DNA from: Paramacrobiotus metropolitanus | Taxonomy: Eukaryota; Tardigrada; Eutardigrada; Parachela; Macrobiotidae | Direction: 5' to 3' | Length of the DNA: 64,000 bases | NCBI RefSeq assembly: GCF_019649055.1 | Contig: NW_026570277.1 | Location: 885,341 to 949,340 of the forward strand | Shown: in pieces, positions 40,910-64,000 of the stretch | Layout: every line of letters begins with the position of its first letter | Numbering within the stretch: position 1 is the first letter of the stretch | Made by a program: the position numbers and the translations under genes | Notes under the pieces: generated by a model | Seen by the model: only the letters and a program-made list of their open reading frames with translations | Databases searched by the model: none | Told to the model about the DNA's origin: nothing

Positions 40910-41040
40910 AAGTCCAAGTTTTAGAGTCCAAGTGAAGTCCGAGTTTTAGAGTCCAAGTGAAGTCCAAGTTTTAGAGTCCAAGTGAAGTCCGAGTTTTAGA
41001 GTCCAAGTGAAGTCCAAGTCCAAGTTTTAGTATTCCAAGT
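40910..41040. repeat. 25-bp tandem repeat, four full copies
   Basis: The unit AAGTCCRAGTTTTAGAGTCC plus AAGTG repeats four times, with R alternating A, G, A, G, which points to growth by a 50-bp dimer. It abuts the foldback at 40613-40890. Confidence 0.85.
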
Positions 41041-46489: not shown

Positions 46490-47033
46490 TTTCTGACTCG
46501 TAAAGGTCACAGGTCCTGTCCACCGTTTTCCGCACTTTGGCCCATTCCGCTCTGTTGAGCAATGCCGCGCATCCATAATGCGACTTTTCATCACAATCCG
46601 CTTGAGAATCAGGTGCGTATCAAGTACGACTTAGGAATACTGCTTCAATCTTTGGAATATGGTGCGTATCATTCGTACGACTTCAAAATGAGATCCAATA
46701 AAAGTCATGGAGGGACGTCATGTAGACAAGCGTAGTTCGCTTCCTCCCTGGTAAAGGTCATCCTTTGTTGAGATGATCCGTTGAGATGTGCGACTCATTA
46801 TGGGTTAATAGTCCCAAAAAGGTCATGCGACTTAAATTCTGATACGATGACTCTCTTGGGCGGTAATGATCCCAAAGGTCATCTGACTTCTCTTCAAACT
46901 TCCATCACAGGTCATGGAGGAACTTAGCCAATTTTCTGCGGCTTTCAAGCACTTCTTCGCTTGCCTCCTTGGTAAAATTTTTTAGTTTGACCTTTCTGTC
47001 GCACATCCAACCTCAGTATGCCTCGAGCGGCCA

Positions 47034-47510
47034 GAGTGCCGGCAAGTTTACCGTAGCATCTCTGATGGGGCCGGCCAATTACCGCATTGAGTTTTACCCC
47101 ATGAAATTTCCACCTTAAGTCTTTGACTCTTGTTCGCCGCTTGTGGCTTACGTTATTACGAGAAATCCGGCTTGGTTACCGTAGTTTTTCTCGTTTTAAT
47201 TTGAACACTGAATCGCTTAAAAAGAGTGCCGGCACAGTTTACCGTAGCAACTCTAATGAGGCCGGCTGATTGCCGCATTAAGTTAACCTCATCAATATTC
47301 CACCTGTTGTCTTTCTCTTTTTCGCCGCTTGTGGCCCCGTTTCGTATTCAAGAGATCCGGCTTGATTACCGTTGTTTCTCTTGTGCATTTATAACACTGA
47401 GTCGCTTAGAGAGGAGAGCCGGCTAACTGCCGTAACTACTCCCTTGGGGCCGGCTTTATAGACCGAATCAATTTCAACCCCATAGATATTCCACCTGATT
47501 TCTTTAGGCA
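47034..47510. repeat. 190-bp tandem repeat, about 2.5 copies, 3' region of the retroelement
   Basis: GAGTGCCGGC-type starts lie at 47034, 47224 and 47414, exactly 190 apart. Each unit has TACCGTAGC, GGGGCCGGC, a CCAC-CTT block, CGCCGCTTGTGGC and ATCCGGCTTG. Copies have diverged by perhaps 25-30 percent. Confidence 0.85.
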
Positions 47511-47577
47511 ATTCTGTGCTATAAACGCGACAAATGCCGTAGACGTCCTTTCAATAGTGTGATCCTAAAGGTCAACA

Positions 47578-50322
47578 CTATTCCATTTCGTTTGAATCGC
47601 CCTCGCCATCTCTCGGCGGGCGTTTCTTAGCGCTTTCCGGTTGGTTTCGGTCGGAAGTTCGGTCAACTGGTTCCGTCGAGTCGACTTCCATGACCTTTGT
47701 CGGGTCGACTTCTCGTTGGCCACGACCTTTACCTTGGCGACTTCGCTTAACCGCCTCAAGTCGATGGCGTGCGTCATTTTCTTCTAGTCGCAGTCTTCGG
47801 TTATCGGGGTCGTTAGCTAGGCGACGTTGCACATCAGCGAGATTCTCCCTAAGCTGCTGGTTCCGTATACCGCGTCGTCCCATCTGGTTAGGAGCACGTT
47901 CCGGACGACGGTCACTTTTCTTCACCAAGAAGTCATCAATGTAAGTCTCGACTCCGTCTACCGGTTCCACATAGTCACTTCCTAGAGAATCTTTGATCTT
48001 ATTGATCCTCTCTTCAACTTGGGAGGCATGGCGCTGTGTCAAGTTGCCCTTTTCCATCCGTGTCTTACATTTCTTCAGCGCCTTTCGAGCATTATGGGCT
48101 ATGCTAATGTGTTCCAACGGTTGTCCCAATTTAGCGACATGAGCCCGGAAGAACGGTGGAATGTCGTCCTTCATAGTATTAGACACCAATTGATTCTGTG
48201 TCTTGTAATGTGCCAATCTCGCAGCGAAGACCTTTTGCCCCATCCTTTTTGCGGCATGGTCCTTCGGATCCACCTGTAATCCGATCGATGCTCTCGCAGC
48301 TAACAACTTGAAAGCCGGATTCACGTAGCGTAGAACAAACTGAGCCACATATTCCTGTCGTTCAGGATAATCGCGATAATAAAACTGTGTCATTCCGATT
48401 GGGTCAGTTGTATCCAATGGTACATCCAATAAGTTCAAATCCACTAAGCTGTGTAGCCCATTCTGTCTGATAGGGAGATAACAGTCCCGTACCGAATCGC
48501 GGTGGATGAATAACCGGCGAAAAAGTCCTTGTTCCACTCCCTCTTTAATTTCTTTCGCGTAACCCGAGTCAAGTAAGAATTGACTCAGCTGTCGCAGAAT
48601 TGTGCCAATTTTATTGGCTTCAACCGAATCCGGCTCGAGTCCAAAGTATCGACAAATTTCGACCGTTTGCTCATCAATATCAGTCGTCTTGTATTCCATG
48701 TCAATACTTTCTGGTTGTCGGTTATTAAATCTGGAGTGTAATCGCTGATCGCCTTGGCGACGATTATCCTGTTCGCCTTGACCTTCCGGTTCACGTCGGG
48801 CTGCTGATGCTGGCTGCGACGGTTCATTACTCGTCGATGAAGCCGGTTGAAGGTCACTATCCAGGATCACATTTCGTCGGTGAGTCACATTCTCTTGAGA
48901 CGTGGTTTCGACAACTGAGCTGGTCCCTTCCATCGCATCGTCTTCTTGTACGACGCTCACAATTGGTTCCACTACGTGAACCACTGACTCCACCCGCTGA
49001 TACTTTGGAGGTGAATCTTCCCGTTCAGTGCTTGATGACCTTTTGCTTGCGCCCGAGTCAAAGGTCGCATAAAATGCAGCTCTCTGTTGCCATCTTTTAT
49101 CCTGTCGGTCGGGTGTTCGATTCCGCGTTTGTTCGCGTCTTTTGTCCCATGACCTTTCAGGTGTTGACATTCTGACATTGCGATTCCGGAATGCAACTCC
49201 CATCGGCACCTGATGCCCTTCCTTTTCAGGTTCTGTACGGAATGTCTCCGCACGCCGTTTTTCTTCACGTTCTCTGGTCGCTGCCAATAACTTCGTTGTG
49301 TCGATCTTCCTCTGAATGCTCATCTCGGTCACTTCATCGCCGTGGCGTACCCATCCTCTTCCGCCGCGGTAATCCCTGTCGCGGGAGCGTTCGCGTGACC
49401 TTTCACGGTGGTAGTCACGTGTCCTTTCCCGAGAATGTTCACGTGACCTTTCGCTCTGGCGTTCGGAAGTCCGCTCATGTTCACGTGAGTATCCGCGTGA
49501 CCTTTCTCTATGCGGAGGCGACCGAGGTCGAATGAAACCTTCGTCCCGTTTAAAACTTCTGAGTGCTTGCAGCACATCGCTTTCAGTTCGGCGAGATTTA
49601 CGTAGGTCATCCATACGTTTTTCGACTTCCTTCTTTATGTATGGTGCCGGCGCGAACCCGTCTTGCAGTCGTTTCTTTTCCCGCAACAGCATTTTGAATA
49701 TCTCGTCTGACATAGCAACTGGATCTTTCGTTAACGTTTCAATTTGAATGATAAGCGACTGTCGTACGAGTTGCATTTCGTCTTCATTAAGGCTGGCCAT
49801 GCCCGTGGGTGGAGCTAAACCCGACGTACTGGGCAACCCCTCTCGTGCAGCCTGTTCACTTGCTCTCTTATTCTCCGCATTAATTTTCGCGCGGATTTCG
49901 TCTTCCATTTGCTGAGCTCGCATCTTCGCTTGGTCTTCTTCAAATTTCTTCCGATACGCGTCTGTCTGTGGACACTTCAACGGCTCCAAGGTGTCATCCC
50001 AGCCAGGTTCGTTGTTTCGGATCGCTTCTCGATAACGATCTTCGAATAGCATTCGCTCTTCTACAGGGATGCTGCCGTAATTTCTTGCGCTTATGAGATT
50101 TCGAAAAACGTCCAAGTTCCCACGTTTGGCTTCCGTGATCCCAACAAGCGTGACAGTATGTGGGTCTTCCAGCTTGTGAATACAGGTGTAGCAAGGGAAT
50201 TTCTTATCAACCTTTTTGTTGTTCCTTAAGCAGTCCGGACATTTCGGATTATAGCCCGTAAACTGATCTATGTCTGCCGCCGTTCCCGTACGTTTAGGAG
50301 TGGCTTGACCTTTCTGTGCCAT
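47578..50322 (-). CDS. Retroelement downstream ORF: 914-aa protein with N-terminal Cys pairs and an Arg/Ser-rich centre
   Basis: The protein begins MAQKGQATPKRTGTAADIDQ and soon shows two Cys pairs, CPDC and CYTC (about residues 28-46), which could bind zinc. A charged coiled-coil-like stretch (about 120-180), an Arg/Ser/Glu-rich segment rich in ERS and SRE steps (about 255-330), a disordered middle, then a globular part (about 535-790: YFGLEPDSVEANKIGTILRQ, LRYVNPAFKLLAARASIG) and a basic tail follow. It is the longest open frame in the element and is uninterrupted. I do not recognise the family; a nucleic-acid-binding structural protein is a guess. Parts of the RS segment are encoded by repeats of the GAAAGGTCACGTG type. 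Confidence 0.65.
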   Translation of the reverse strand: MAQKGQATPKRTGTAADIDQFTGYNPKCPDCLRNNKKVDKKFPCYTCIHKLEDPHTVTLVGITEAKRGNLDVFRNLISARNYGSIPVEERMLFEDRYREAIRNNEPGWDDTLEPLKCPQTDAYRKKFEEDQAKMRAQQMEDEIRAKINAENKRASEQAAREGLPSTSGLAPPTGMASLNEDEMQLVRQSLIIQIETLTKDPVAMSDEIFKMLLREKKRLQDGFAPAPYIKKEVEKRMDDLRKSRRTESDVLQALRSFKRDEGFIRPRSPPHRERSRGYSREHERTSERQSERSREHSRERTRDYHRERSRERSRDRDYRGGRGWVRHGDEVTEMSIQRKIDTTKLLAATREREEKRRAETFRTEPEKEGHQVPMGVAFRNRNVRMSTPERSWDKRREQTRNRTPDRQDKRWQQRAAFYATFDSGASKRSSSTEREDSPPKYQRVESVVHVVEPIVSVVQEDDAMEGTSSVVETTSQENVTHRRNVILDSDLQPASSTSNEPSQPASAARREPEGQGEQDNRRQGDQRLHSRFNNRQPESIDMEYKTTDIDEQTVEICRYFGLEPDSVEANKIGTILRQLSQFLLDSGYAKEIKEGVEQGLFRRLFIHRDSVRDCYLPIRQNGLHSLVDLNLLDVPLDTTDPIGMTQFYYRDYPERQEYVAQFVLRYVNPAFKLLAARASIGLQVDPKDHAAKRMGQKVFAARLAHYKTQNQLVSNTMKDDIPPFFRAHVAKLGQPLEHISIAHNARKALKKCKTRMEKGNLTQRHASQVEERINKIKDSLGSDYVEPVDGVETYIDDFLVKKSDRRPERAPNQMGRRGIRNQQLRENLADVQRRLANDPDNRRLRLEENDARHRLEAVKRSRQGKGRGQREVDPTKVMEVDSTEPVDRTSDRNQPESAKKRPPRDGEGDSNEME

Positions 50323-50661
50323 TTTTCCGCTTCAATCTGTAATTATAAAACAATCCGTCATATTAACTTCTCCACGTTAATCCTTTCCATTTCCTATCCA
50401 TATCAAGGCTTTTCTATCATTTTACGCCTATTCCGTTACTGAGCTGAGACTTTCCTAGCTCCTGCTGCCTTTTCTATCACTGTAACGTGGTGACCTTTCT
50501 CACGTTATCAGTACTCTCTGACTACTGTGACCTTTTCTATTAGTCCTAGTACTGCTTTCAGTTGACCTTTCGTAACACTTTTCTCTTTCGTTTTAAATTA
50601 TTTTATGCTTTTTCTGTAATATGCAGGGTTCATTACTCGCTGCATATTACACCCGATTAGT

Positions 50662-51150
50662 TCACTCGGATTCTTTCGTCGATGGTTTATACGGCTTGAA
50701 ATCGATTCGGCCATCTGGCTTAACATGAAGCACTTCATCTACGATCAAGGCTTCGACGGCATTCTTAATCCACTCTTTATCGCTTTCAATATTCAGCTCT
50801 CCCAATTCATAATTGACGGCCATGAAGTTCGAAAGGTCATTCCATGACGCGCCATTGGTACCGCCAATGGCGTCCAGAGCCACATCTGTGATGGCTATCT
50901 TCCAGGCCTCCAGTTCCATTTTCAGTCTGGGCGTTCGTTCCGTGCCCTGTTTCGGAAGGTAGTAGACGACTTTGTTGTCCTTGTTGTATTTACATCCCAA
51001 CTTTCCTTCCTTATATGCTCGTTTCAGAGCCCGTTCAGTCATATTAAGTGACGACCTTCCGTTCGTATTTATCGCCACTTGTCTTTTCAGGTCTGTCCCA
51101 AGCATTTCTTTCTCCCGAATAATCTGAGTGCGTTCTGGACTTCGTTCCAT
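50662..51150 (-). CDS. Retroelement segment with winged-helix-like repeats (second part)
   Basis: This 162-codon frame continues, after a frameshift at about 51100-51140, the segment upstream. Two similar stretches, one ending ALKRAYKEGKLGCKY and VVYYLPK, the other SWNDLSNF to AVEALIVDEVLHVKPDGRI, look like helix-turn-strand wings of winged-helix domains. It ends at a TGA followed by about 300 nt of non-coding DNA holding five AAAGGTCA motifs. Confidence 0.5.
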   Translation of the reverse strand: MERSPERTQIIREKEMLGTDLKRQVAINTNGRSSLNMTERALKRAYKEGKLGCKYNKDNKVVYYLPKQGTERTPRLKMELEAWKIAITDVALDAIGGTNGASWNDLSNFMAVNYELGELNIESDKEWIKNAVEALIVDEVLHVKPDGRIDFKPYKPSTKESE

Positions 51151-51939
51151 GTACGATTATTCACGTCCAATGCCGGCCCTAACATGTAATCTGTAGCCTC
51201 CTTTGCCGGTGTACCGCTACTTTTCTGGGAGGATGTCGAGTCCGTTGGGTCAGCCGTCGCTGTCTCGTCGATCCTCAGCTTTGCCAGTGATCCTGATGAT
51301 GACCCCGCCGATTTTGGTTCGGCTGTCTTCTTCTCCTCCTGTGGCAAAGTCTCTTGACCTTTTAAATCGCCGACCGACTTCGATCGTTCCTTCTCAAAGA
51401 CGTCCTTTAATGGTATGAACAGTGATTTGTGAAACACCTGGCGCGCCGAATCCGCTTCAGCTTCTGCCGCTGCCTTATCCATCGGGAGCATGACCTTTTC
51501 TTTCTCCCGTTTATCTGAAGTCTCATGACCTTTCGGTTGATCTTCTGCGGTAGTTCCAGATGTCTCTTGACCTTTCGGCTGTTCGCCTTTTTTCTGTCGC
51601 AGGTCCAGAAGGAGCCGTTGTTTTAGTATCGTCATCACTTCCCGATTCCGAGTCCATTGGGCCTTTTGTCTTCGATGAAACTGTGACCTTTTCCATATCC
51701 TGACTGTCGGACATATTACAGTGGATCTGTCTTTCCGGTGGTATTAGACCAACTCTCGTGTATCGGATCGGGTGTCCTTTATTTGCGTTTGTCGTGGCAA
51801 GGACGTTCTGTTTAATCAACTTTGGCAATACGCGTTCGGTTGCCGTGTCGATCTCCTTTATCATTCCATTTCCGTCGTTCCAAACTGCGTTGATGTATTG
51901 GCTAATCCGGTGACTCGTTGATCCTAATGGGCTTGTCAT
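51087..51939 (-). CDS. Retroelement segment: winged-helix-like module and disordered linker (two overlapping frames)
   Basis: The 5' part (51939-51523) contains TSHRISQYINAVWNDG, ERVLPKLIKQNVLAT and PIRYTRVGLIPPE, a third winged-helix-like module. A frameshift near 51,600 leads into a Lys/Glu/Ser-rich linker (51638-51087) with KGQET and KGHET repeats, ending NRTWNEVQNALRLFG. The linker repeats contain the AAAGGTCA motif in the Lys-Gly-His/Gln frame. Confidence 0.5.
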
Positions 51940-53150
51940 TCCCGCGATTGCCCTTCCACTCGCATTGGGACCGCTTCATTCGGAGTTGTCAGCGCCTTAT
52001 CCGAACTGGCTGGTCTGAACAACTTGGCCTCATACGAGAAACTCGGGTGCTTCTGGATAAGTTTTCCTGCGTTCCGTGCGAATTCCAGTACGACGTCAAA
52101 CTTCTGTTTAGTAAAGCTACGACGCTGTTTCTTGAGATATGTCTTCAAGCCTGCTTTAAATTTCGATGTCACCGATGCTGTTCTTATCCGTGTGAAATTT
52201 TTCTCAGCTCCATTATACGCGTTGATGATGTCATCGACCGTGGTCAAACTGTCATCGTCCGGATCATCAAATTCCTCATCTTCTGTAAAGTCCAATTCAC
52301 TCTCTCCATCTGGTTCAGCGTAATTGATCATTGCCATTGCATCAACTTTCATGGCTGTTTTGACCTTTCCTTTCGTCTTAACGGGCTCGCTCTTTGCTTT
52401 TTGCCCTTTATCCAAGGCCTCCGCTAGGCTTCTTGGTTCTGTGGTCCTTGACCGGGTTGTCTTCGAATCCGTATACGACCTCGCACTGACTGTCGAAGTG
52501 CTCGGTAGACTCGCTTCCGATGCCTCCGATTCAAGCGACGTCTCCCGTTTCGCTTTCTCACGACCTTGTTTGGCCTTACGCTCTTTTATCGTGGATGCGG
52601 ACATTACAATGGGGACAGCTTGTTTCACTACGATGACCTTTGCTCTGGGTTTTGGCGACTCGGGCTCAGTGACCTTTGCTTTTGATGTAGCTGATTGGAT
52701 GACTTTCTTTGACTTCGTAGGTGTCGATGACCTTTCTTCAACTTCGCCAACTGACTCGTCCAATATCTCGACATCATGAGACGCTGGTTCATCTTTTTTC
52801 TTCTTTCCGGTGCTTGTGCTATCGCTTTCATCACCGCTCTTTTTTCTTCTTATCTTCTTCCTCCTGTTGTTTCTTCTTATCTTCTTCCTCCCGTCGTTTC
52901 TTGAGAAAATCGCCTTTCTTAACCTTGTCGCGGTTCATGGCCTCTTCCAATCTGGGCGCTTTTCTCGGTTTGACTTTTGAGGCTTGACTTTAAGGGCTTT
53001 TATGCTTGTCGGCCGTTTCTTCGTCTGAGCCTTCTTCCTCAGGTGGGTCCTCGTCTTCCGACTCTGGTTCGTCGTCACCAGGTGGATTACAATAGCCACA
53101 GTTTGGTTCATCACACTGAAGGTGCTCATGACTTCCTGGGCAATCTCTAA
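51936..53150 (-). CDS. Retroelement segment: Cys-rich motif, Lys/Glu-rich linker, helical C-terminal part
   Basis: From about 53150 a frame without ATG shows CPGSHEHLQCDEPNCGYC (53080-53142), a possible zinc site, then an acidic and a Lys/Glu-rich run. It joins the 275-codon ORF that starts at 52763 (MDESVGEVEERSSTPTKSKK). That ORF ends with a folded-looking region, VDDIINAYNGAEKNF, FKAGLKTYLKKQRR, FARNAGKLIQKHP. No known family recognised. Confidence 0.5.
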
Positions 53151-54080
53151 CACTCTTTGTAGAGAACGTCTTGCCCTCCGGTTTCAGTTAGATTTGCCGA
53201 CGTGCCTGGCGCCTCTTCCGTCTCTCCGGCTCCGCCTTCTTGTGCCGGGGGATGAATTTCCAAGTGTCTTGTCTCTTTCGGAGATCCCTGTGAGGCGACC
53301 TCCCACAAAGGGTTCTTCTTAGCATCGTAAAATACCGTTTTGTACGATCCGTCTTCCATTCGTCTTGTGAGTCGGAAATGTGCTCCATCGATTTCCGCTC
53401 GATGCCGCATCATGCTGATCAGTGTACTCGCTTGAACCACGGCATCTGTCCGGTCACTTTCGGGTATCAGATCCCATAACTGCTCAATGGCTGCCTGATT
53501 CGCATTTCGGGCGCTCTCTTCTGACACATCCCATGGGGCATATGGAACCGGGTCTCCTGTTATTGGATCGACTATCACTGCAGTTATGGTTTCCACAGCT
53601 TCTCCATTACCACCGAAAAGTCTGAGGGTGACCTTTCTGCTTGTCGCATCTGTATATCTCAGGACCGACTCATAATCATCTGACGATCGTTTCTTCGGGT
53701 CTGGATCCGCCGTCGGTTTTGAGCGAGTTCTCTCTTTGATCAACAGTTTGCCATCCGTTGTATATGTATATGCCAAGTGGTCATCATCTGTGCCCACTTT
53801 GATACGGATCCATGCATCCTCTTCGGTTGCGACTTTAGATACCACGTGCTTCATCATCTGAACGATAACTCTTGGGTTATGACGTTCTTCTGGAGGAATA
53901 AACTGTAGCGCCTCATTGACTATCGTTTTTGACTCTTTTCCAATGGCATCCTTGACTGACCTATCCGCGAGGGGATTATACGAGTCAATCTCTTTGTTCG
54001 TCTTCTTATCGACTATTCGTGCAGTGACCTTTCGTTCTCTATGATCTTCCCCAGTGTACTTGGCCGTGAAACTTCTACAC
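53147..54080 (-). CDS. Retroelement segment: beta-rich domain of unknown function
   Basis: The 236-codon ORF from 53857 reads ATEEDAWIRIKVGTDDD, LLIKERTRSKP, KVTLRLFGGNGEAVETITAV, then AIEQLWDLIPESDRTDAVVQ. Upstream the same protein seems to continue to about 54080 (ARIVDKKTNKEIDSYN, LQFIPPEERHNPRVIVQMM), so the start at 53857 is internal. A frameshift at about 53150 links it to the Cys-rich segment. Confidence 0.5.
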
Positions 54081-54224
54081 TTCGGGAATCGAATCTGACC
54101 TTCCGTTCATTTCGGCGTGGGTGGTACACTCTTTCTACCCACTGGAATCGGGGCCTGTGGCTTTACCGGCTCAGCTGGCGTTGCTTTACTTTCTGTGGGC
54201 TTCTTTGTTCGCTGCCCTTTCTTA

Positions 54225-55484
54225 TCAGTTTCTTTTGGGCTTGTCGTCGGTGATCTCACTCTTTTTTCCACTCTTCGTGGTGCCACTGGATGGTTCTGTG
54301 ACCGAACTAGTGCGTCCACGTCCTGATCCTGCAACCGAGCTAGCCCGTGACCTTTCTGCTCGTTGTGTTAATACGGCATCAATCTTCTGCTTTGTTGCCA
54401 AAAGGTCCTCGTCTGTCATTTCGTCGACTGGGGCGTCTTTTTCAACCATGGATTTAGATGGTCCCTCGGCGCTGGTAGTCGGCATCTGTCTCGCTTCCGG
54501 GAACACTTTAAGGTACCTAAGAATCTTCTCGATAGTCGAAGGCCATGGTCTACCGTTTAGCGACGGGTGGTATGCCACATCGATGCAACTTTTATCGCGT
54601 ATTCCTGCGCTCTTTTTCGATCAGTTTCGTTTTTCCTTCAGCGCGATATGACATGGTTTGATGACAGCTTCCAGACTAATCAGCTTTCCATACCATGCGT
54701 GTTCATCTTCAACTCGCATGTGAATTCGGTAAAGTTCACGACACTTTCGGTTTAATTCCCGGATAGCTTCTAAATCCTTTTCTGTCAGTTCGTCGTTCTT
54801 ATCCGGAATGATATTTAAGCGTGCATCGTCCTCTCTCAGATCCAAAGGAAGCTTCGGTGCGTATGCATGTATCGACGGTTCACCTGGGGGCGTAAGCCGT
54901 AATCCGTCTGGTCCAGTCTCGTCCAAGTTAGGCCCCAGTGACGGTAAAATTCCTCTCGGTCGCCTGTTTCCTCTGTTTGGCGAATTGCGATGTAGACGCT
55001 GCACACCCAGTTGCTGCGGTGTCCTCATACGAGGCGCTCCTATGTCCGATAGTGCCAAGCCTCCGGTCTCCGGAAAAGGCGGTAGTATCGGGGATGACCT
55101 TTGTGATCGCGGTGGAGTTCCGCTGAATCCACCATGTCCCATAAATCGACTCGGTGTGGTCTGTTGCGGTGGCGGCATCAACATTCTGGCCGGTCCCATC
55201 ATCGCTTGTGGCGGTCCCATCGGTGGAGTATATGATCCTGGATACGGTTGATAAGGGGCGGCGACCGTTGCTTGTCCCGAATACTGGGTTCCGGCAGGTG
55301 AGCCGTGGTGCACCCAGTTAACCGTATCCTGGTAGCTCGTCTGCTGTCCTGGATCGTGATACACATAATACCCTGGACTGCCGTAGTAGCCTCCTTGAAC
55401 TGTTCCGGGTTCATTCTGGGCCGTTCCCGCTGATGACGTCGATCCTTCACCATATGAAGTGTCATAGCCATATTCACCTTCCAT
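54225..55484 (-). CDS. Retroelement downstream ORF start: Gly/Tyr/Pro-rich protein
   Basis: The ATG at 55484 opens MEGEYGYDTSYGEGSTSS and about 130 residues rich in Gly, Pro, Tyr and Gln (low-complexity, phase-separation-like). A charged region then follows (LREDDARLNIIPDKNDELTE, ELNRKCRELYRIHMRVEDEH). It stops at 54621 and the next segment (54578-54225: HPSLNGRPWPSTIEKILRYL, MTDEDLLATKQKIDAVLTQR) is in another frame. It follows the integrase after about 500 nt, so this looks like the first ORF of an extra 3' gene. Not an obvious envelope: no signal peptide or membrane segment is seen. Confidence 0.5.
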
Positions 55485-55997: not shown

Positions 55998-56960
55998 TTA
56001 TCTGCGGTAGCAGTGTGGTTCGAAAAGGATTGTTGCAAGTCCTTTTGGAGGAACGCTCTGGTACTTTGGTGCTAGTTTCGGTATCTTTTCCAGTGACCTT
56101 TCTGCCAAATTACCAGCCTCCGCGTTCAACTTAATTGTGACTGCGGTTTCGAAGTCCTTATCTTTCCTTTTTCTTCCTCTTCTTATTTGGATTCTGTCCG
56201 TCTTGGTGACTTTTGGTCTCTTCATTAACTTCATGTAGCAGAGGTGGTTCGAAAATGGCTTCTGTTGCGTGACTGAGTCATTTTCGGACTCTGGTTCGTC
56301 TTCTTTTCCACTAACATTCTCCATTTCAGGTAGCAGAGGTGGTTCGAAAAATTGATTGGTACCATTTTTCGAAGCATGCTCGGCTTCTTTCGTTCCTTTT
56401 TCGTTCATCGTTCGTTGCGAATTTTTCTCGTCGGGTAATGGCGGATGCCATGGTTTCAAGCGATCAATGGAAACTACTTTTAGGTCTGCTTCTTTCTTCG
56501 GGTTCTGTTCAATGACCTCGGCTTCATTTGGTCGCGGGAAACTGAGAATCTTCCAAACTTTATCGTACTTCGATTTAAAGTCCGATTGGTTTTCTTTCTT
56601 TCCTTGTTTCGTATCCTTTGGTAGCCGTATCAATACGAAGTCTCCCACTTTGAAGTTCGGCTCAGACTTCTTCTTGTTGTAAATCTCCGCATTCTTCTCA
56701 TAAGCGTCTTTAATATTACACCGTGCCACTTCTTCTGCAAAGGTCAAGTTCTTCTTCATGGTCTCCACCCATTCGTCTGGAGTCCCATAATCATCGGGTA
56801 TATTCGTTTTTGTAACCACATCTTCCGGCATTGTCATTTCTCTGCCGTGTAGCATATAGTATGCTGAATATCCGGTTGTGGCGTGTACGACCCTGTTCAT
56901 CGCCGAAATAACATATGGGAGGTACTTGTTAAATTTTCTTTCATTTCCGCTTTCAGGTAT
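55998..56960 (-). CDS. Retroelement integrase, C-terminal part
   Basis: Following a frameshift near 56,930, the end of the integrase core (NRVVHATTGYSAYYMLHGRE) continues to a C-terminal DNA-binding domain with FKVGDFVLIRLP, YDKVWKILSFPRPNEAEVIE and VVSIDRLKPWHPP, the GPY/F-type arrangement of Gypsy integrases. A Lys/Glu-rich tail with FFEPPLLPEM and FSNHLCYM-type sequences, encoded by the dispersed TTCGAACCAC repeat, ends the frame. Confidence 0.75.
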   Translation of the reverse strand: MPESGNERKFNKYLPYVISAMNRVVHATTGYSAYYMLHGREMTMPEDVVTKTNIPDDYGTPDEWVETMKKNLTFAEEVARCNIKDAYEKNAEIYNKKKSEPNFKVGDFVLIRLPKDTKQGKKENQSDFKSKYDKVWKILSFPRPNEAEVIEQNPKKEADLKVVSIDRLKPWHPPLPDEKNSQRTMNEKGTKEAEHASKNGTNQFFEPPLLPEMENVSGKEDEPESENDSVTQQKPFSNHLCYMKLMKRPKVTKTDRIQIRRGRKRKDKDFETAVTIKLNAEAGNLAERSLEKIPKLAPKYQSVPPKGLATILFEPHCYRR

Positions 56961-57667
56961 TGTGCCAAGCCATCAGCAATCGTCTGCATCTGTCTTTCAA
57001 CTTGGCCTTGACCTTCTGGGTGATATGCGGTTCCAAATGTGTGTTTAATCTTAAACACGTTGGTGACCTTTGCTAATACTTCAGCTGTAAAGTGTCGTCC
57101 GCGATCCGTATGTAGGATGTGCGGTGCTCCGTGTACCAATATCACGTGCTTCACGAACACTTTAGCGAATTCCTTGGCCGTCGCCGTTTTCATCGGTACT
57201 GCAATCACGTATTTCGTCAGTTGATCGATGAATACCGCTATGTATTTGTATCCGCGTTTCTTCGTTGGGAGCAACGGTCCTTTCAGATCAGCGTACACTC
57301 GGAAGAACGGATGTCCAACCTTAATCTCTTGCAATTTTCCAGGTGGGCATTTCCTCGGTGTTTTACGAAACTGACATCCTTGACAGGCGAGTATGTAATT
57401 CTTCACATCTGTACTCATCCTGTCCCAGTAATATCGGAGTCGAATCGCTGTCAGTGTCTTCTCAAATCCTAAATGTCCTGCTGCCTTCTCATCGTGCAAT
57501 GCGTGGATTATCGCTCTTCGCATTGACAACGGTACCACATATGACCTTTCAAGTCTCCCATTTTTATCCTTTACTCGGTACAGTATGCCGTTCCACAACT
57601 GGTAATGCACTTCAAATTTGGATCTCGTTTCGGCGTCTGGTAGATGTTCCAGCTCGTCTATTATCAT
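56897..57667 (-). CDS. Retroelement integrase, N-terminal zinc and catalytic core
   Basis: The HHCC zinc region is present (HALHDEKAAGHLGF, then CQGCQ), followed by the DDE core: Asp in VYADLKGPLL, Asp in HTDRGRHF and Glu in EGQGQVERQM, with the usual Gypsy spacing. The integrase inserts element cDNA into the genome. The frame is lost near its 3' end, where the remaining core reads in the frame of the next segment. Confidence 0.85.
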   Translation of the reverse strand: MIIDELEHLPDAETRSKFEVHYQLWNGILYRVKDKNGRLERSYVVPLSMRRAIIHALHDEKAAGHLGFEKTLTAIRLRYYWDRMSTDVKNYILACQGCQFRKTPRKCPPGKLQEIKVGHPFFRVYADLKGPLLPTKKRGYKYIAVFIDQLTKYVIAVPMKTATAKEFAKVFVKHVILVHGAPHILHTDRGRHFTAEVLAKVTNVFKIKHTFGTAYHPEGQGQVERQMQTIADGLAQYLKAEMKENLTSTSHMLFRR

Positions 57668-57697
57668 CGCCAGATGAGGATCTTTCAGTTTGTTTTT

Positions 57698-58549
57698 TCA
57701 CAGCTGCAGATTTGAGTCATCCTCTTCTTCTTCGTCGCCTTGCAGGTTGACGATACGGACTGTCGCCGTACTCAGTTCGTTCCAATCCTTGATGACCTTG
57801 CATCGCGGTAATGGCTTATATCTCTTTTTCATCTGTTTTGGGAATCTCAACAGCTTGATCGGGCATTCGTTCAGTGCTTGTGTCACTTTATCCGTTTCCC
57901 AAAGGTCATCTCTATTCTCGGTCGCTTCATTAAGTCCGATGACCTTTCCATTGGGAGCTTCAAATTCCGCTTCCAGTCCGGTGACCTTTAAGTCACTAAC
58001 TTTTGGCAACCAGCTTTTTACACGGTTCACTTGCACTTCTGATTCAGCCGACTCATTCGCCGTAGCTGAGGTGACCTTTAAACGTTTTTCTCTCTGCTCC
58101 ACCATCTGTAAGAACAGCTGTCCAATTTCAATTGCCGGTTCTTTCGTATCAAATTCTTTCTTGTAATCTTCGAAGTTCGGAATCTCGTCAAATTCCTCTT
58201 CTTGGCATGTAGGGCCTTCAATTGGTGCTCTTGACAGTGCATCTGCGTTGTCACAATACTTTCCCGGTTTATATTCAATTTTGAATTGGTGACCTTGCAG
58301 TGCCATCGCCCATCTTGTCAAACGCGGGTTCATGCCGACTTTATTCGTCTCTGACCTTAACAAGTTGGTCAGTGCCTGGTGATCCGTTCGTACGGTGAAT
58401 TCCGCATAATCGATGAATGGCTTGAATTTTCTGACAGCGAACACCACTGCCAGACATTCCCATTCCGTTACGCCGTAATTTCTCTCTGCTCCGTGTAGAC
58501 GCGGCTGGCGTACGCGATCGGGTGACCTTCTTGTGAGATAGGACAGCAC
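57698..58549 (-). CDS. Retroelement RNase H
   Basis: Contains the Gypsy RNase H blocks ERNYGVTEWECLAVVFAV (catalytic Glu) and FTVRTDHQALTNLL (Asp), then KIEYKPGKYCDNADALSR near its end, and a linker up to the integrase. The first RNase H Asp block lies in the broken stretch 58550-58700, where no single frame is open. Confidence 0.82.
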   Translation of the reverse strand: MLSYLTRRSPDRVRQPRLHGAERNYGVTEWECLAVVFAVRKFKPFIDYAEFTVRTDHQALTNLLRSETNKVGMNPRLTRWAMALQGHQFKIEYKPGKYCDNADALSRAPIEGPTCQEEEFDEIPNFEDYKKEFDTKEPAIEIGQLFLQMVEQREKRLKVTSATANESAESEVQVNRVKSWLPKVSDLKVTGLEAEFEAPNGKVIGLNEATENRDDLWETDKVTQALNECPIKLLRFPKQMKKRYKPLPRCKVIKDWNELSTATVRIVNLQGDEEEEDDSNLQL

Positions 58550-58699
58550 CGATTCCTTCTTTACTCGCGTCGCATTCGATTACGGTCGGCTTCGTCGGGT
58601 CAAACTTTGCTATACAGGTCCTTCACACAACAGCTGTTTCAGACTGTTAAATCTATTCGTGTACCTTCGTCCAGTCTTTCTTTACATGTTTATCCTGTC

Positions 58700-60098
58700 T
58701 CAGCAGTTCGTACAAATGGCAGTCTTCTGTGCATATCCCATTATGAACTTGCGGTAATAATTCGCCAGTCCGAGGAATGACCTCAATTGCCTTTCTGTTT
58801 GCGGTCGTTTGAATTCTTTAACTGCGGTGACCTTTTCAGGATCCATTCGAACTCCGTCTTCGCTGAGTATATGACCTAGGAATCCCATCTGTCTCATTCC
58901 AAATTCACATTTCGTCGGTTTAATCGTGAATCCCGCTTCAACTAAACTCATTAAGACGTTTCTCAAGTTTGCATGAAAATCGCCCAAGTTTTTCCGGCGA
59001 AGATGACGTCATCGATGTACCCGAAAACGCAACCCTTTCTTTCGCTTTCGACAATACTTTGTCCATGCACAGTTGGAATGTTGCTGGCCCATTGCAAACT
59101 CCAAATGGCATACGTTTAAACCGATACATTCCATCTTGCGTGACAAAGGTCGTCTTATTGATTGACGCTGGATCCATTGGGATCTGCCAGAATCCACTTT
59201 GCAAGTCCATTTTCCCGTAATATTTGTTGCCTGCACACGCGTCGAGCAATTCATCTGGATTCGGTAGCGGGTAATTATTCTTTCTCGTCAGCTTGTTAAG
59301 CATAATGTAATTGACACAGAATCTCGTCCCCATTGTTCCGTCACCATTTTTCTTTACTGCCAGCACGACTGGGAAACTCCACTCGGCGTCCGACGGCTCG
59401 ATTACATCTTGTGCCAACATTTCTTCAATATGTTTTGTTATGAACTCACGGCCTGTCCAACTCGTTCTGGCCGGGTTACATTTAACTGGCTTCGCGTCTC
59501 CCGTATCGATTACGTGAGTGACCCCCTTCACGTCTCCATACGGTTTCTTTGATGTCGGTAAGACCTTCCAGAATTCCCAGAACGCGTTGTATACGTCGTT
59601 CTTCTGTTCCTCAGTTAGGTCAGGTCCTAGTTTCAAATTCCCAATTATCTTTGTCAGTTCCGTTTTCGTTGTATCATCCACCTCTGGGTCCTCGAGTACG
59701 TTCTTTACTGTCCCAGCATTGACCTTTACGTTTTCCATATGTTCGTACGGTTCAACGTATCCGAGAAGCTGATTTTTCTTCACGACTCGGTATTTGCTGC
59801 TATGATTTGCAATGACAATTTCGAAATATTTTCCTCTATGGTCCGTCACTCCTGCCAACGGTTGCACTTCAGTTTCCATTTGTGGGACTGGTGTAAACAT
59901 CAACTTGTTTTGAGCCGGTGCATATTTTCCCATCTTGACCTTTACACGTGTGCAGTTTGACGGTTTCAATTTGATTCGCTGATCGCTGTAAACTTTGATC
60001 ACGTCCTTCGACATTCTAGCTTTTTCCACTTTCAATCTTCTGACTTTAATATCCTTTTCTTTTTCCTCATCTACTTCGTCATCTTCATCCAAGTCCAT
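58700..60098 (-). CDS. Retroelement reverse transcriptase (with frameshifts)
   Basis: From 60098, a spacer with VKVKMGKYAPAQNKL and YRVVKKNQLLGYVEPYE precedes RT, which shows RFCVNYIMLNKLT, YPLPNPDELLDACAGN, KMDLQSGFWQIPMDP and FKRMPFGVCNGPATFQ. The catalytic YIDD (coding bases 59008-59019) lies in a different frame, then RT continues in a third frame (58987-58700: IKPTKCEFGMRQMGFLGH, LRSFLGLANYYRKFI). Two small indels therefore bracket the active site. Confidence 0.83.
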
Positions 60099-60744
60099 TA
60101 AATCCTCTTGCTCCGAAAGGTCACTTACACCTGAATCTTCCGAAGTTGTTGAGTTATCGCTTGAACTCGTCCACTCGGAGTCGGAGTTACTGCTCTCATA
60201 TTCTTGTGCAGTAGCTTGACCTTTGTCAACCTTTTCAAGTGGGCGCTCATCAACTCCTTCATCTTCTGATGAAAGGTCACTTTCGTTTTCTCACTTGCTA
60301 AAGTTTTCTTTCGAATTCTGAGCAGGGTTTGTCCCCTTCTTTTGCCTTTCGCCCGTTTCGTGCGGCTACTCTCGGGTGACTCCTTGCTACTCGAATTCTC
60401 GTTGGTGACCTTTCTGATTGGTCGGAGTTTGACCTTTCTTCGTCCGATTTTGACTTTTCCAGTTCATTTATTTCTTCGCGGCTCGTTAATGGCTTTTCGG
60501 TCGACTCGACCGGCGGACATTCCTCACCGTTATCGAGTGACCTTTCCCCGTTTTTGCCTCAGTTACTGGGTTTTGCTGTTCATTGGATATTCGTTCAACT
60601 TCTTCTTTAAACTTCTTCCACATTTCGCCCCTGTCCGTTAACATCTGTGCAATGTCGAAAGCCGACTTTGAACTTTCTTCTGTTTCATTCGATTTCTTCG
60701 GCTATCTTTAACTGGTTCTCTTTCTCTGCTTCTTTGACAGTCCT

Positions 60745-61017
60745 TTATTGCTTCATCCTGTTGAACTGTTTCGTAACCTTTAGGTCGTTTAGGACCAACA
60801 AGATGCAGTTTGCCATCAGCTCTTCGGTGACCCATTCATCATTCGGAATCGTTTCATACATGCACCATGTATCACCACCTCGTTCTGGGTAGTCCACTCC
60901 ATCTGGATCTGGTGCAAAGGTCACCTTTTTCTTTTGCATCAATCCCGGTAACCTTCTTTTCCGGGTTACCTGTAGTTCTCGCATTTCTTTTACGTCAAAT
61001 TTGGGATTTCTCTTCAA
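60745..61017 (-). CDS. Retroelement coding segment before RT, unknown
   Basis: This 90-codon frame reads KVTFAPDPDGVDYPERGGD, TWCMYETIPNDEWVTEELM, ANCILLVLNDLKVTKQF. Composition and the absence of low complexity suggest real protein. It lies between the protease and RT, where Gypsy elements normally have only a short linker. The surrounding 60.1-60.7 kb is Ser/Glu/Lys-rich coding-like sequence with many AAAGGTCA motifs and no clean frame. Confidence 0.4.
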   Translation of the reverse strand: MKRNPKFDVKEMRELQVTRKRRLPGLMQKKKVTFAPDPDGVDYPERGGDTWCMYETIPNDEWVTEELMANCILLVLNDLKVTKQFNRMKQ

Positions 61018-61230
61018 ATTTCTCCCAGTATTTCTCGAATGCTTTTTCGTTTCCCTCTTTTAACGCGTTGTAGTACACTTCAAGTGATTCGTAGACAGGT
61101 GTACCGTCCTGCCGGGAAGATGATCGTTCTCCCTTCACCTTTATACATGTGGTTCACACGAGTCCCAGAAAAGGTCAACTCTCGCTTCTTCCCACATTTC
61201 TCCTTCTCGGTCATCTCTTCTATCTCTCGT

Positions 61231-61557
61231 TCAAATCTCCTTTCTGTTGCTACCGGATCGAGAGGATCTTGGATTCCTTTCTCCACGTTGCAACCAATGG
61301 TTTAGCCATCTGCCTCTTCCAATTATAAAACTTTCCACACATGACAACCACGTTCGATATCTATTCCAATGATACCGTTCGATGTGTGGTTTCCACATTT
61401 CGTTTGTCCGCATGATGCTTTTCGCTTTCTTTTGGGCATGACCTTTAAGGTCTGCTAATGCGGCATTACATCTTGGCCATTCTGAAGGGTCATCTTGAGA
61501 GGCATTTTCACAACATTCCGCATTCCCATTGTGGTTGCACTCTGCACGGATCCTCAA
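61231..61557 (-). CDS. Retroelement Cys-containing segment before RT, unknown
   Basis: This 108-codon frame has five cysteines in its first half (AECNHNGNAECCENAS, WPRCNAAL) and then basic, aromatic sequence (WKPHIERYHWNRYRTWLSCV). I do not recognise a family. The frame is open at both sides only through shifts. Confidence 0.35.
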   Translation of the reverse strand: MRIRAECNHNGNAECCENASQDDPSEWPRCNAALADLKGHAQKKAKSIMRTNEMWKPHIERYHWNRYRTWLSCVESFIIGRGRWLNHWLQRGERNPRSSRSGSNRKEI

Positions 61558-61844
61558 AGTAACCGTGGTGACAACTCCGGCTCGTTCTTCTGGAGTTAAT
61601 GTCCTTTGACTCGCTTCAGGTTTAACCTGTTCCTGTACTGTGGTATCTTCCTCACATTCGATTGGGTCACGCTTTTATCCTCAGAGGATATTTCAATGAC
61701 CTCTGGTTCTTTTCTGTTCGGTGACCTTTCAATTGTTCGAGTGCCTTGTCGCGGATTTCGCTTGTAAACATCTGTTCCTCTTCAACTATTCGTTTCAAAA
61801 CTCGTAACCTTTCACTCTTTTATCCTTCCCACTTTAGCCGTCTT

Positions 61845-62412
61845 TATTTCCAGTGCCTCTGGTACTGGATAGGCTTTACCCTCCATGTCTGGCACAAGAG
61901 ATTGTTTCGCTGCAACTGCCGCTTCTTTCTGTGTGGCAATTATCTCTTCAATCGTTGGTGACCTTTCGGTAGCAGGTCGTGGTTCGAAAAAGGGTTCCTT
62001 TTGAGATCACGTTCTGTTACTTCCTCTTTGGCTTTATCTGGTAGCCTTTCATTTTGGTAGCAGATCGTGGTTCGAAAAGGTTCGAATTACGCTCTCGTTC
62101 CAAGTTCTCAGTTGCTGGTGACCTTTCGTCTTCCTTTCCCAGTGCCTCTGGTACTGGGATAACTTCGACTTTTTCCATTTCTTTCCAGTGCCTCTGGTAC
62201 TGGGATAATTCTTCCTGCTGCACTTTTGTCATTCCAGTGCCTCTGGTACTGGGATGACCCTTCTGTGTCAGCAAGGTCCGATTTAATGTCTTTTCGATCT
62301 CCTGCTGGATCACTTGCAACTGCTCAAATGGTGACAATTCTTTTCGCGTCATCTTTCTTTCGTTTCCGGTGCCTCTGGTACTGGGATTAGCGTTTATTAA
62401 CAGTTTGAGCAT
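61845..62412. repeat. Five copies of a short hairpin-forming repeat within retroelement coding-like sequence
   Basis: CCAGTGCCTCTGGTACTGG occurs near 61850, 62140, 62186, 62231 and (as CCGGTGCC...) 62368. The CCAGT and ACTGG ends pair. On the coding strand the copies fall in all three frames (PVPEALG, QYQRHW, PSTRGTG), so the repeat is kept as nucleic acid and not as a peptide. Confidence 0.85.
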
Positions 62413-62496
62413 TTCCTGTTTTGCAAGTTCGGTGACCTTTCCGACTTGAACTTTGGCGACTGGTTTTGGGTCATCTTCTTTTCTTCTTCACCTTCA

Positions 62497-62790
62497 TTAT
62501 CCACAGTACGAATTTCTTTTCCAAGAAGTCGATCCCAGTAACACTTGTACGTCGTCACACTTCGGTCGGACGTAGAGAATGTTCGTCTTCTTTCGTAAGG
62601 TCACTGGTGCTACACAGTAGTGCGTCACCAGGAATCCTGACGTTCCGCTAATTCCGTTAATTTTCACCAATCTATCTGGTGGCAATGGAGCATGTGAAGT
62701 CCATTCTTCTCGCAAAACGGTTTGCTGATCAGCGACGTCTCAGCGCCGGTGTCAACATTGCGTTGACCTTTATGTCTCCCTTTCACTTCG
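62497..62790 (-). pseudogene. Retroelement aspartic protease, frameshifted
   Basis: The active site DTGA (coding bases 62742-62753) is followed by ETSLISKPFC, but the frame closes soon after. The rest of the protease fold reads in the frame of the ORF 62715-62497: RLVKINGISGTSGFL (flap region), VTLRKKTNILYV and VQVLLG, the usual end of a retropepsin. One shift near 62700 separates the parts. Confidence 0.7.
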
Positions 62791-63059
62791 TGTGTGTATG
62801 CTTCAATTCTCTTGGGCAGTTTTCATTTGAATCTTCAATGTATGAATCTTACATTTCACAGGGATAAGCGATACTGGTCCGGATCCATATCGGAAAGCAC
62901 TTGTCCTTTGCTGGAGTGCTATGACCTTTCAGTATCTCGCTCAACTTATCAATCCTATGTGGAACGTTAGTCGAACATCGTAATATTTTCGCGGCTTTTC
63001 TTTATTTGTTCGCTTCTCTGTAGCCATTTAACCTGACCTTTTCCACATTCTGCACTTGC

Positions 63060-63332
63060 TCATTTGCTTTGTGCTATCATGTGACCTTTAGTCACTTCAT
63101 TTATCGTCTGATGGATCAATTCCTCTTTACGGTTTTCATTTCGTTTATCTCTCAGCTTCTCAATGACTTCACTTGTTATTTGGTCAGCTCGCTTCAATTC
63201 GTCTTCTTCGCTATCTTTCATCTCATCTGGTGACCTTTCATATGTAACCATGTCATATCCTTTTCGGTCATCCATTCGATCACCTTCGCGAACTTCATTG
63301 TTCGTTTTCGTCTGATCAATTTGTGAAGACAT
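63060..63332 (-). CDS. Retroelement charged segment upstream of the protease
   Basis: A 90-codon frame, MSSQIDQTKTNNEVREGD to ELIHQTINEVTKGHMIAQ, rich in Asp, Glu, Lys and Arg, probably helical. It seems to continue the product of the segment at 63218-63790 after a shift. It could be part of Gag, but no capsid or knuckle signature is visible. Confidence 0.4.
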   Translation of the reverse strand: MSSQIDQTKTNNEVREGDRMDDRKGYDMVTYERSPDEMKDSEEDELKRADQITSEVIEKLRDKRNENRKEELIHQTINEVTKGHMIAQSK

Positions 63333-63790
63333 TCCGTCTGTTCGGGCTGGTGACTTGTCATTGGCATCCTTTTGCAGTGCCTCCGATAAGTCCGTGACCT
63401 TTCAACTGCGTTACTCTGTTGCGTTTGCGCCATCTCATTTGACCGTCCTTTTTGTTCATTTTGCGCTAAGTCCTGTGACCTTTCGTTGCGCTTCATGACA
63501 AATCCGCCACCTGTCAGCTTTTGTATGGGACTTTTCTCCATAATTCGGCGGTTTATCCTGTGGTGGAGCATTACGTGAATGATTCCAGTCAGCGATGTCT
63601 TCTTATATTCCTCTGGATTGAATACTGGGACTGGGTTCGATGACCCTTGCGCTGGTTTCCCGGTAACCAACTCTTCCAGTCGCTTTCTTTCATTGCGTTC
63701 GCAACTGTTGCATGTCCCAGTAGTCCTCTTGTGACATTCGCTTTCTGCTTTGCTTTCGGCGTCCGGGTATCCACATCCCGTGATTGCCAT
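63218..63790 (-). CDS. Retroelement Cys-containing segment, possibly Gag-proximal
   Basis: A 190-codon frame starting near MAITGCGYPDAESKAESECH, with ECHKRTTGTCNSCERNERKR (a C/H/C/C group that could be a zinc knuckle variant, spacing unlike the classic CCHC), VPVFNPEEYKKTSLTGI, then a Gln/Arg-rich end. It lies where the end of Gag is expected. The upstream part runs off the window. Confidence 0.4.
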   Translation of the reverse strand: MAITGCGYPDAESKAESECHKRTTGTCNSCERNERKRLEELVTGKPAQGSSNPVPVFNPEEYKKTSLTGIIHVMLHHRINRRIMEKSPIQKLTGGGFVMKRNERSQDLAQNEQKGRSNEMAQTQQSNAVERSRTYRRHCKRMPMTSHQPEQTECLHKLIRRKRTMKFAKVIEWMTEKDMTWLHMKGHQMR

Positions 63791-64000
63791 TCGGTCTGTA
63801 GGCCACTTTTGCCACTTCTCCTTCTGTTGCAGCGTTACTGCGTCACAAGTGAGTCGTCGGAGTTCTGTGCCATTTCATTATTCTTTTGCTGCGCTGTTCG
63901 CAGTGTCAGGTCTTGACCTTTTAACACGACGCTGTCGCCGTGACCTTTCGCATTCACACTTGCTCTTGACCTTTCACGGACTTTTCCAACAGAAGGTGAC

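What the first reader, a model, noticed from the sequence alone, without database searches (positions are those of the whole stretch)
46490..64000. The octamer AAAGGTCA is scattered about 66 times through a 17.5-kb retroelement
Reading by eye I count about 66 exact AAAGGTCA/TGACCTTT in 46,490-64,000, against about 0.5 expected for both strands, and only about ten in the first 46.4 kb. Most (roughly four of five) are AAAGGTCA on the element's coding strand. They occur in all three coding frames (Lys-Gly-His/Gln, Lys-Val, Arg-Ser) and in non-coding parts, so they are not a peptide repeat. AAAGGTCA is the known monomer site of NR4A-type nuclear receptors (NBRE) and close to the FTZ-F1/ERR half-site. 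Possible roles: promoter/enhancer load, RNA packaging or silencing signal, or a replication by-product.
Basis: partly seen in the sequence, partly recalled or inferred. Interest (0 to 1): 0.88.

Follow-up and report, generated by a model that had tools for sequence, protein, structure and literature searches.

The report
Retroelement studded with receptor-site octamers
A giant jumping gene of a water bear carries about ninety copies of one exact eight-letter DNA word, on both strands and in every reading frame, and evolution keeps that word more strictly than the coding sequence around it, which points to a DNA-binding protein of the animal (probably a nuclear receptor) that the element depends on.

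Summary
The host is the tardigrade Paramacrobiotus metropolitanus. The element is a giant Ty3/gypsy-like LTR retrotransposon of about 24.4 kb, not 17.5 kb; the window cuts it at a contig end. One copy read up to its 5' LTR holds 94 octamers, ten of them clustered in the 5' leader; the LTR holds none.

The octamers are under strong selection as DNA words. In aligned copies, octamer bases mismatch in 1.2% (56 of 4,683) against 9.6% elsewhere; at third codon positions 1.0% (9 of 892) against 22.5%. The footprint is 8 bp. Both orientations are conserved. Two sister-family loci with about 40% protein identity still carry 13 and 16 octamers in about 4 kb, partly at other sites.

Best explanation: a double-stranded binding site for a host factor, most likely the NR4A nuclear receptor, whose DNA-binding exon and A-box the host encodes. 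Binding is not shown. An element-wide load of this kind, conserved above coding sequence, is new to me.

The parts
45870..64000 (-). 3' part of a giant Ty3/gypsy-like LTR retrotransposon, cut by the contig end at 64,000; coding strand is minus
   Evidence: Most aligned 3'-end loci begin at about 45,870; window is the end of contig C57, 949,340 bp; AT skew changes here
45870..46228 (-). 3' LTR (about 355 bp), without any octamer
   Evidence: In the C3 copy a 355-bp stretch matching 45,870-46,228 is present at both ends with 100% identity; no octamer in 45,870-46,489
46502..63974 (.). 66 exact octamers. AAAGGTCA on + (antisense to coding): 46502 46753 46818 46874 47567 50832 55987 56739 57901 60116 60272 60916 61170. 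TGACCTTT on + (sense): 46988 47691 49036 49150 49396 49444 49498 50306 50491 50528 50563 51355 51491 51526 51568 51684 52361 52634 52670 52728 53629 54025 54348 55095 55624 56094 57064 57542 57940 57982 58072 58828 59720 59936 60217 60406 60430 60538 61439 61722 61959 62119 62433 62764 62922 63034 63082 63231 63395 63476 63914 63941 63967
   Evidence: Exact search; conservation in copies, well covered only for 46,502-47,691 and 55,624-58,828
46907..46914 (+). octamer site lost in this copy (ACAGGTCA); 27 aligned loci read AAAGGTCA
46700..46707 (+). octamer site lost in this copy (AAAAGTCA); 25 aligned loci read AAAGGTCA
47578..50322 (-). 914-aa ORF downstream of integrase, seven octamers, no Pfam family; the 11 database relatives found are all from P. 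metropolitanus
50662..55484 (-). five further ORFs (162-287 aa) without Pfam family
56897..57667 (-). integrase: H2C2 zinc domain and rve core
58938..60098 (-). reverse transcriptase ORF (RVT_1)

Best explanation
The octamer is a double-stranded DNA binding site for a host sequence-specific protein, most likely a nuclear receptor and among those NR4A (HR38), on which the element's propagation depends. SHOWN: the octamer is a selected DNA word of 8 bp, dispersed over the element's internal region, clustered in the 5' leader, absent from the LTR, and present at high density in diverged sister families. INFERRED: the host receptor binds the leader cluster and the body sites, keeps the 24-kb chromatin open and drives or sustains transcription in cells where that receptor is active, against host silencing; each additional site helps a little, so sites accumulate wherever coding constraint allows, most densely where coding sequence has been lost.
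For: Octamer mismatch 56/4,683 (1.2%) v 20,194/210,220 (9.6%); codon position 3: 9/892 v 9,252/41,151; positions 1 and 2: 1/804 and 4/720 v 5.6% and 4.0%; low mismatch stops at the octamer's edges. For 16 sites covered by 20 or more loci, none of 100,000 random sets of 8-mers was as conserved. Sense octamers intact in 337 of 354 cases, antisense in 215 of 240. In the window the strand ratio 53:13 does not differ from base composition (p 0.08, 0.39, 0.75 under three backgrounds). Leader cluster: 10 octamers in C178, 9 in C3; octamer mismatch 0/69 v 72/608. The two sister-family loci fetched keep 13 and 16 octamers where third positions are only 32-34% identical to the window. AAAGGTCA is the NBRE read by NR4A receptors (passages). 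Host encodes an NR4A-type DNA-binding exon (best PDB match NGFI-B, 75 bits v 62 for the best non-NR4A entry) followed by VVRTDSLKGRRGRLPTKPK, the NR4A A-box (identity recalled). A at octamer position 1 fits NR4A rather than the C of FTZ-F1/ERR sites (recalled); CAAGGTCA occurs twice. Incomplete AGGTCA half-sites look conserved too: 9 of 12 mismatch in 2.5% or less v 28% of all 6-mer sites; one of the nine is the decayed octamer at 46907, leaving 8 of 11. None of the 63 zf-C4 matches lies on contig C57, so the window codes for no such domain by that search.
Against: No binding, chromatin or expression data. A nuclear receptor might be expected to tolerate more degeneracy than 66 exact to 38 one-mismatch words. 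The LTR, where enhancers often sit, has none. Why about 90 sites across coding sequence would be needed is unexplained. In the 5' part of C178 the strand ratio is 14:14, more antisense than composition gives, because the leader cluster has one orientation. By mean mismatch, AGGTCA outside octamers ranks only 30th of 334 hexamers, and two of those sites are not conserved. Site 47567 is absent in 15 of 25 loci; in the arrays of deletion derivatives 79 of 109 octamers are intact. Other host zinc-finger proteins could read the same word.
Confidence: 0.5

Rival explanations
1. A host chromatin or insulator protein other than a nuclear receptor (for example a C2H2 zinc-finger protein) reads the octamer; the leader cluster is an insulator like that of Drosophila gypsy and the body sites extend it.
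For: 10 octamers in about 460 bp of the 5' leader resemble the 12 Su(Hw) sites in 340 bp of the gypsy 5' UTR (PMC2374998, passages); sharp 8-bp specificity.
Against: The word differs from the Su(Hw) consensus quoted there and equals a nuclear-receptor site; incomplete AGGTCA half-sites look conserved too.
Confidence: 0.18
2. An element-encoded protein reads the octamer on the cDNA or integrated DNA, to coat, condense, import or integrate an unusually long 24-kb cDNA.
For: Sites are spread over the whole internal region, as a coat or address would need; the element carries several kb of ORFs of unknown function.
Against: Pfam found no DNA-binding domain besides the integrase zinc domain in the ORFs scanned (10 of the 11 window ORFs of 150 aa or more on the coding strand; 10 of the 30 open segments listed for C178). 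The model of the 914-aa protein is poor (pLDDT 46) and says nothing either way.
Confidence: 0.15
3. An RNA-level signal on the genomic RNA (packaging, export, stability), or RNA-RNA pairing of UGACCUUU in the leader with AAAGGUCA in the body.
For: 53 of 66 in the window are AAAGGTCA in the sense strand; the leader cluster is the reverse complement, so 8-bp pairing is possible; the 14:14 ratio in the 5' part is not explained by composition.
Against: The window's strand bias is explained by base composition; antisense octamers are intact in 215 of 240 cases, 15 of the 25 losses being at one site, 47567.
Confidence: 0.12
4. By-product: tandem duplication, template switching or mutation bias scatters the word without function.
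For: Parts are tandem-like: units of 28 and 40-41 bp in the leader, arrays of about one octamer per 40-60 bp in deletion derivatives.
Against: Octamers stay while their flanks diverge; in the aligned loci sites are mostly fixed and change by point substitutions or small indels; two sites are shared between families with near-saturated third positions.
Confidence: 0.03

Closest known systems
gypsy (Drosophila) insulator with 12 Su(Hw) sites in the 5' UTR (PMC2374998, passages)
   Same: Cluster of about ten copies of one short word in the leader inside the 5' LTR of a Ty3/gypsy-like element
   Different: Word is AAAGGTCA, not the TGCATA-type Su(Hw) site; about 80 further copies spread over the body; insulator activity untested
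NBRE, the NR4A (NGFI-B/Nurr1/HR38) site (PMC12539977, PMC3281863, passages)
   Same: Identical 8 bp; host has an NR4A-type gene with conserved A-box
   Different: Not a promoter element here but a load of about 90 sites through a retroelement; binding untested
Nuclear-receptor half-sites in Alu repeats (PMC1785376, PMC3252374; search listing only)
   Same: Retroelement spreading AGGTCA-type half-sites
   Different: Alu carries a few sites (recalled); here tens of sites, conserved above coding constraint
Giant gypsy-like Burro elements of planarians (PMC6431247, passages)
   Same: Internal region over 20 kb, extra ORFs
   Different: Burro accessory domains (MATH, BIR, ankyrin, BCL2-like) not found in the ORFs scanned; no dispersed octamer is mentioned in the passages seen
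Dispersed short words of bacterial genomes: uptake sequences, Chi, KOPS (recalled)
   Same: One exact short word scattered through coding DNA, kept by selection, with few near misses
   Different: Those serve DNA uptake, recombination or segregation; this is a eukaryotic retroelement with sites on both strands and a leader cluster

Membership tests
Ty3/gypsy-like LTR retrotransposon | Domain order protease, RT, RNase H, integrase | tested here: met
   Copy C178: aspartyl protease, RVT_1, RT_RNaseH (5.7e-5, 23.7 bits, just under Pfam's 24.8 cut-off), H2C2 and rve in that order on the coding strand
Ty3/gypsy-like LTR retrotransposon | Long terminal repeats | tested here: met
   355-bp repeats, 100% identical, in C3; 85% match of the C178 5' end over 251 columns before the contig ends
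Ty3/gypsy-like LTR retrotransposon | Target-site duplication | tested here: inconclusive
   GCTC on both outer sides of the C3 copy by my reading; one copy only
Ty3/gypsy-like LTR retrotransposon | tRNA primer binding site after the 5' LTR | tested here: inconclusive
   TGGTAGCAGAG follows the LTR in L067; match to initiator Met tRNA is from recall
Ty3/gypsy-like LTR retrotransposon | RT phylogeny within Ty3/gypsy | not tested
   no tree built
Burro-type giant retrotransposon | Internal region above 20 kb | tested here: met
   C3 copy spans about 24.4 kb with 355-bp LTRs (locus coordinates, matches)
Burro-type giant retrotransposon | MATH/BIR/ankyrin/BCL2 accessory domains | tested here: not met
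   None in the 20 ORFs scanned; 20 of the 30 C178 segments were not scanned
NBRE / NR4A response element | Word AAAGGTCA | tested here: met
NBRE / NR4A response element | Host NR4A with DNA-binding domain and A-box | tested here: met
   L083 exon and VVRTDSLKGRRGRLPTKPK in L091; A-box identity recalled
NBRE / NR4A response element | NR4A binds and regulates through it | not testable with these tools
   needs wet work
gypsy-type insulator | Cluster of binding sites in the 5' leader | tested here: met
   10 sites in C178, 9 in C3
gypsy-type insulator | Su(Hw) consensus (TC)(AG)(TC)TGCATA(CT)(TC)(TC) | tested here: not met
   The conserved word is AAAGGTCA; by inspection of the leader; consensus
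gypsy-type insulator | Enhancer blocking | not testable with these tools
   needs a reporter

The most novel reading that the evidence does not exclude
The octamer is an element-wide DNA address: about 90 sites let a host nuclear receptor (or an element protein) coat the whole 24-kb element, so that selection acts on the number of bound sites along the body, for anti-silencing, transcription through a giant unit or cDNA import, and not on a promoter alone. With perhaps a few hundred copies the element would also be the largest pool of this receptor's sites in the genome and could titrate it.
Probability: 0.3. Interest if true: 0.92.

Novelty: new variant of a known kind. Interest (0 to 1): 0.86.

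Why it matters
Retroelements are known to carry host factor sites in LTRs or leaders. Here one exact word is kept through protein-coding sequence more strictly than amino-acid-changing positions, on both strands and at high density in deeply diverged families. If a host receptor reads it, this would be a direct, countable record of long-term dependence of a mobile element on one host DNA-binding protein, it would predict where and when the element is expressed, and it would show a new way to keep a very long element active. It also gives a test system: 40 scored matches per query and 208-231 first-look candidates offer many natural variants of site number and position in one genome.

Tried and rejected
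Peptide repeat: rejected, the three frames hold 5, 10 and 10 sense sites and 38 of 66 sites lie outside the eleven ORFs. Helical phasing or regular spacing: none seen; spacing has CV 0.99, Rayleigh length 0.16 at 10.5 bp. Element-coded nuclear receptor: no zf-C4 match on C57. Structure of the 914-aa protein: mean pLDDT 46, so no fold search was made. FTZ-F1/ERR as readers: the host has such receptors (my reading of the translations), but their sites prefer C at octamer position 1 (recalled), and CAAGGTCA occurs twice in 46,490-64,000. Host octamer clusters outside the element (L085: 4 in about 150 bp; L086; L087) were seen but their genes were not identified. Papers: of the 2 papers holding AAAGGTCA and retrotransposon and the 20 of 50 listed, none is about such an element by title and abstract start; the one nearest (PMC12539977) was opened at its AAAGGTCA passage, which speaks of NR4A1 and NBRE only. 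Tardigrade searches listed no paper on this element by title. PMC12941274: no occurrence of NR4A or HR38 in the main text. PMC11191345: no occurrence of transpos or retro.

Full report
OBSERVATION. Masking the octamers and using dinucleotide frequencies gives 0.52 sense and 0.18 antisense expected. The next words in the list are overlapping extensions or low-complexity words. One-mismatch neighbours number 38 over both strands. Genome-wide the word occurs 42,562 times, its reversed control 15,522 times.

WHAT IT LIES IN. The 11 relatives found for the 914-aa ORF are all named Paramacrobiotus metropolitanus, a tardigrade (only the 7,992 candidates sharing most words were scored). The window is the end of contig C57, so the element is truncated. 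DNA searches with two 1-kb pieces gave 231 and 208 first-look candidates, of which 40 each were scored and all 40 matched, so 200 or more copies or fragments are likely but not counted. In the C3 copy a 355-bp repeat, matching window 45,870-46,228, stands at both ends with 100% identity, with GCTC on both outer sides by my reading; from the coordinates the copy is about 24.4 kb. The C178 copy shows aspartyl protease, RT, RNase H (slightly under Pfam's cut-off) and integrase in that order. So this is a giant Ty3/gypsy-like LTR retrotransposon, close in internal size to the planarian Burro elements (PMC6431247, passages) but without their accessory domains in the 20 ORFs scanned.

ANATOMY OF THE OCTAMERS. 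The C178 pieces hold 94 octamers: 66 sense, 28 antisense. The LTR has none. After the 5' LTR of C178 comes about 0.86 kb without octamers, then ten in about 460 bp, all TGACCTTT in the coding strand, nine of the ten within aaagTGACCTTT, with tandem units of 28 and 40-41 bp. The C3 copy has nine in the matching 701 bp; there octamer positions mismatch in 0 of 69 and the rest in 72 of 608. The window's sites show no regular spacing (CV 0.99, no helical phase). In loci where the ORF region next to the 3' end is lost, arrays stand instead: 24 octamers in 1,475 bp of L055, and 27 + 3 in each of the 3,015-bp loci L001 and L003, which look nearly alike. In those arrays octamer bases mismatch in 25 of 831 and others in 962 of 5,886, but only 79 of 109 octamers are intact.

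CONSERVATION. Fetched loci were aligned to the window with blastn. Of the first 64, two are the window itself and two do not align; with L065-L067 the table holds 63 loci. They are the best hits of two queries plus L001, L003 and one whole copy, so good coverage exists for the two query regions only (46,502-47,691 and 55,624-58,828). Octamer sites were intact in 457 of 535 cases against 86,356 of 186,203 other 8-mers (46%) and 418 of 1,068 neighbouring 8-mers (39%); most of the 44 indel cases are alignment slips around a present octamer. Per base, octamers mismatch in 56 of 4,683 (1.2%), the rest in 20,194 of 210,220 (9.6%). At third codon positions: 9 of 892 against 9,252 of 41,151 (22.5%); at first and second: 1 of 804 and 4 of 720 against 5.6% and 4.0%. 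The profile falls at position 1 and rises at position 9, so the footprint is 8 bp. Of 16 sites with at least 20 loci without gaps (46818 and 55987 fell out by gaps), 14 mismatch in 1% or less; no random set of 16 windows out of 100,000 was as conserved. Exceptions: site 47567 is missing in 15 of 25 loci, 52361 in 2 of 3 and 52670 in 3 of 3. The window itself has lost two octamers that 27 and 25 other loci keep. Rows share descent and are not independent.

DEEP PERSISTENCE. A protein search for the 41%-identical relative P0011 scored 78 of 500 candidates and gave 81 matches; two loci were cut out. These sister-family loci (L089, L090), whose ORF is 40-41% identical in protein to the window and 32-34% at third positions, hold 13 and 16 octamers in 4.3 and 4.1 kb, with no copy of the reversed word. 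In the aligned ORF 2 of 7 window octamers lie at the same codon and frame in both; L089 and L090 share 5 of L089's 7. Density is kept while positions turn over.

DNA OR RNA. Sense sites are intact in 337 of 354 cases, antisense in 215 of 240, 15 of the 25 losses being at 47567. In the window the 53:13 ratio agrees with base composition (p 0.08, 0.39, 0.75 under three backgrounds). In the 5' part of C178 it is 14:14, more antisense than composition gives (0.23 v 0.05 expected), because the leader cluster has one orientation, opposite to the body. A double-stranded site fits best; an RNA signal would need both orientations, or pairing of leader and body words.

WHICH READER. AAAGGTCA is the NBRE bound by NR4A receptors as monomers or dimers (PMC12539977 and PMC3281863, passages). 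Of 63 zf-C4 matches in the genome 17 were fetched and read by eye; one, L083, was compared with the PDB: best matches are NR4A entries (75-69 bits), then retinoid receptor entries at 62. The 2 kb downstream encode VVRTDSLKGRRGRLPTKPK, which I recognise from recall as the NR4A A-box. FTZ-F1-, HR39- and two ERR-like domains also exist (by eye). Incomplete AGGTCA half-sites: 9 of 12 mismatch in 2.5% or less against 28% of all hexamer sites; one of the nine is the decayed octamer at 46907, so 8 of 11; two are clearly not conserved and the mean ranks only 30th of 334. This favours a receptor-type reader without proving one.

BACKGROUND. AAAGGTCAG, rare in the element (1 of 53 sense octamers), occurs 4,042 times against 2,427 for its reversed control, so DNA outside the family may carry the octamer at about 1.7 times control; no random sample was fetched to test this. 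Small clusters outside the element exist (L085, L086, L087) and were not explained.

VERDICT. A real, strongly selected, element-wide DNA word in a giant tardigrade retrotransposon; most likely a binding site of a host nuclear receptor of the NR4A kind.

Noticed in passing
L085:129-281 (G000:C1:331,928-332,080): Four AAAGGTCA in about 150 bp outside the element, three of them preceded by atat; may be a host regulatory stretch. L087 has two more.
   Followed up: partly
L086 (G000:C1:565,150-566,450): Repeats of the type tccacctttctgcAAAGGTCAtccacctttc: a minisatellite-like family that also carries the octamer (four copies here).
   Followed up: no
L055:2521-3995, also L001, L003, L039, L050, L063: Deletion derivatives of the element in which the ORF region is replaced by dense octamer arrays; octamer mismatch 25 of 831 v 962 of 5,886 elsewhere.
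   Followed up: partly
629-3933: A second gypsy-type pair of ORFs (RVT_1 and aspartyl protease in one) with only two octamers, at 1525 and 1902.
   Followed up: partly
7369-10550: ORF with DNA_pol_B_2 (1.2e-13) and a neighbouring 508-aa ORF without Pfam family: perhaps a Maverick/Polinton-like remnant.
   Followed up: no
14492-45599: Several ORFs alike by eye (MNGT/MNAT..YGNTVLVQR..WWLGYVQDIDG); the two scanned have no Pfam family: a local gene family of unknown function.
   Followed up: no
40910-41034: 25-bp tandem repeat AAGTCCAAGTTTTAGAGTCCAAGTG.
   Followed up: no
61831-62387: Five copies of a unit around CCAGTGCCTCTGGTACTGG inside the element.
   Followed up: no
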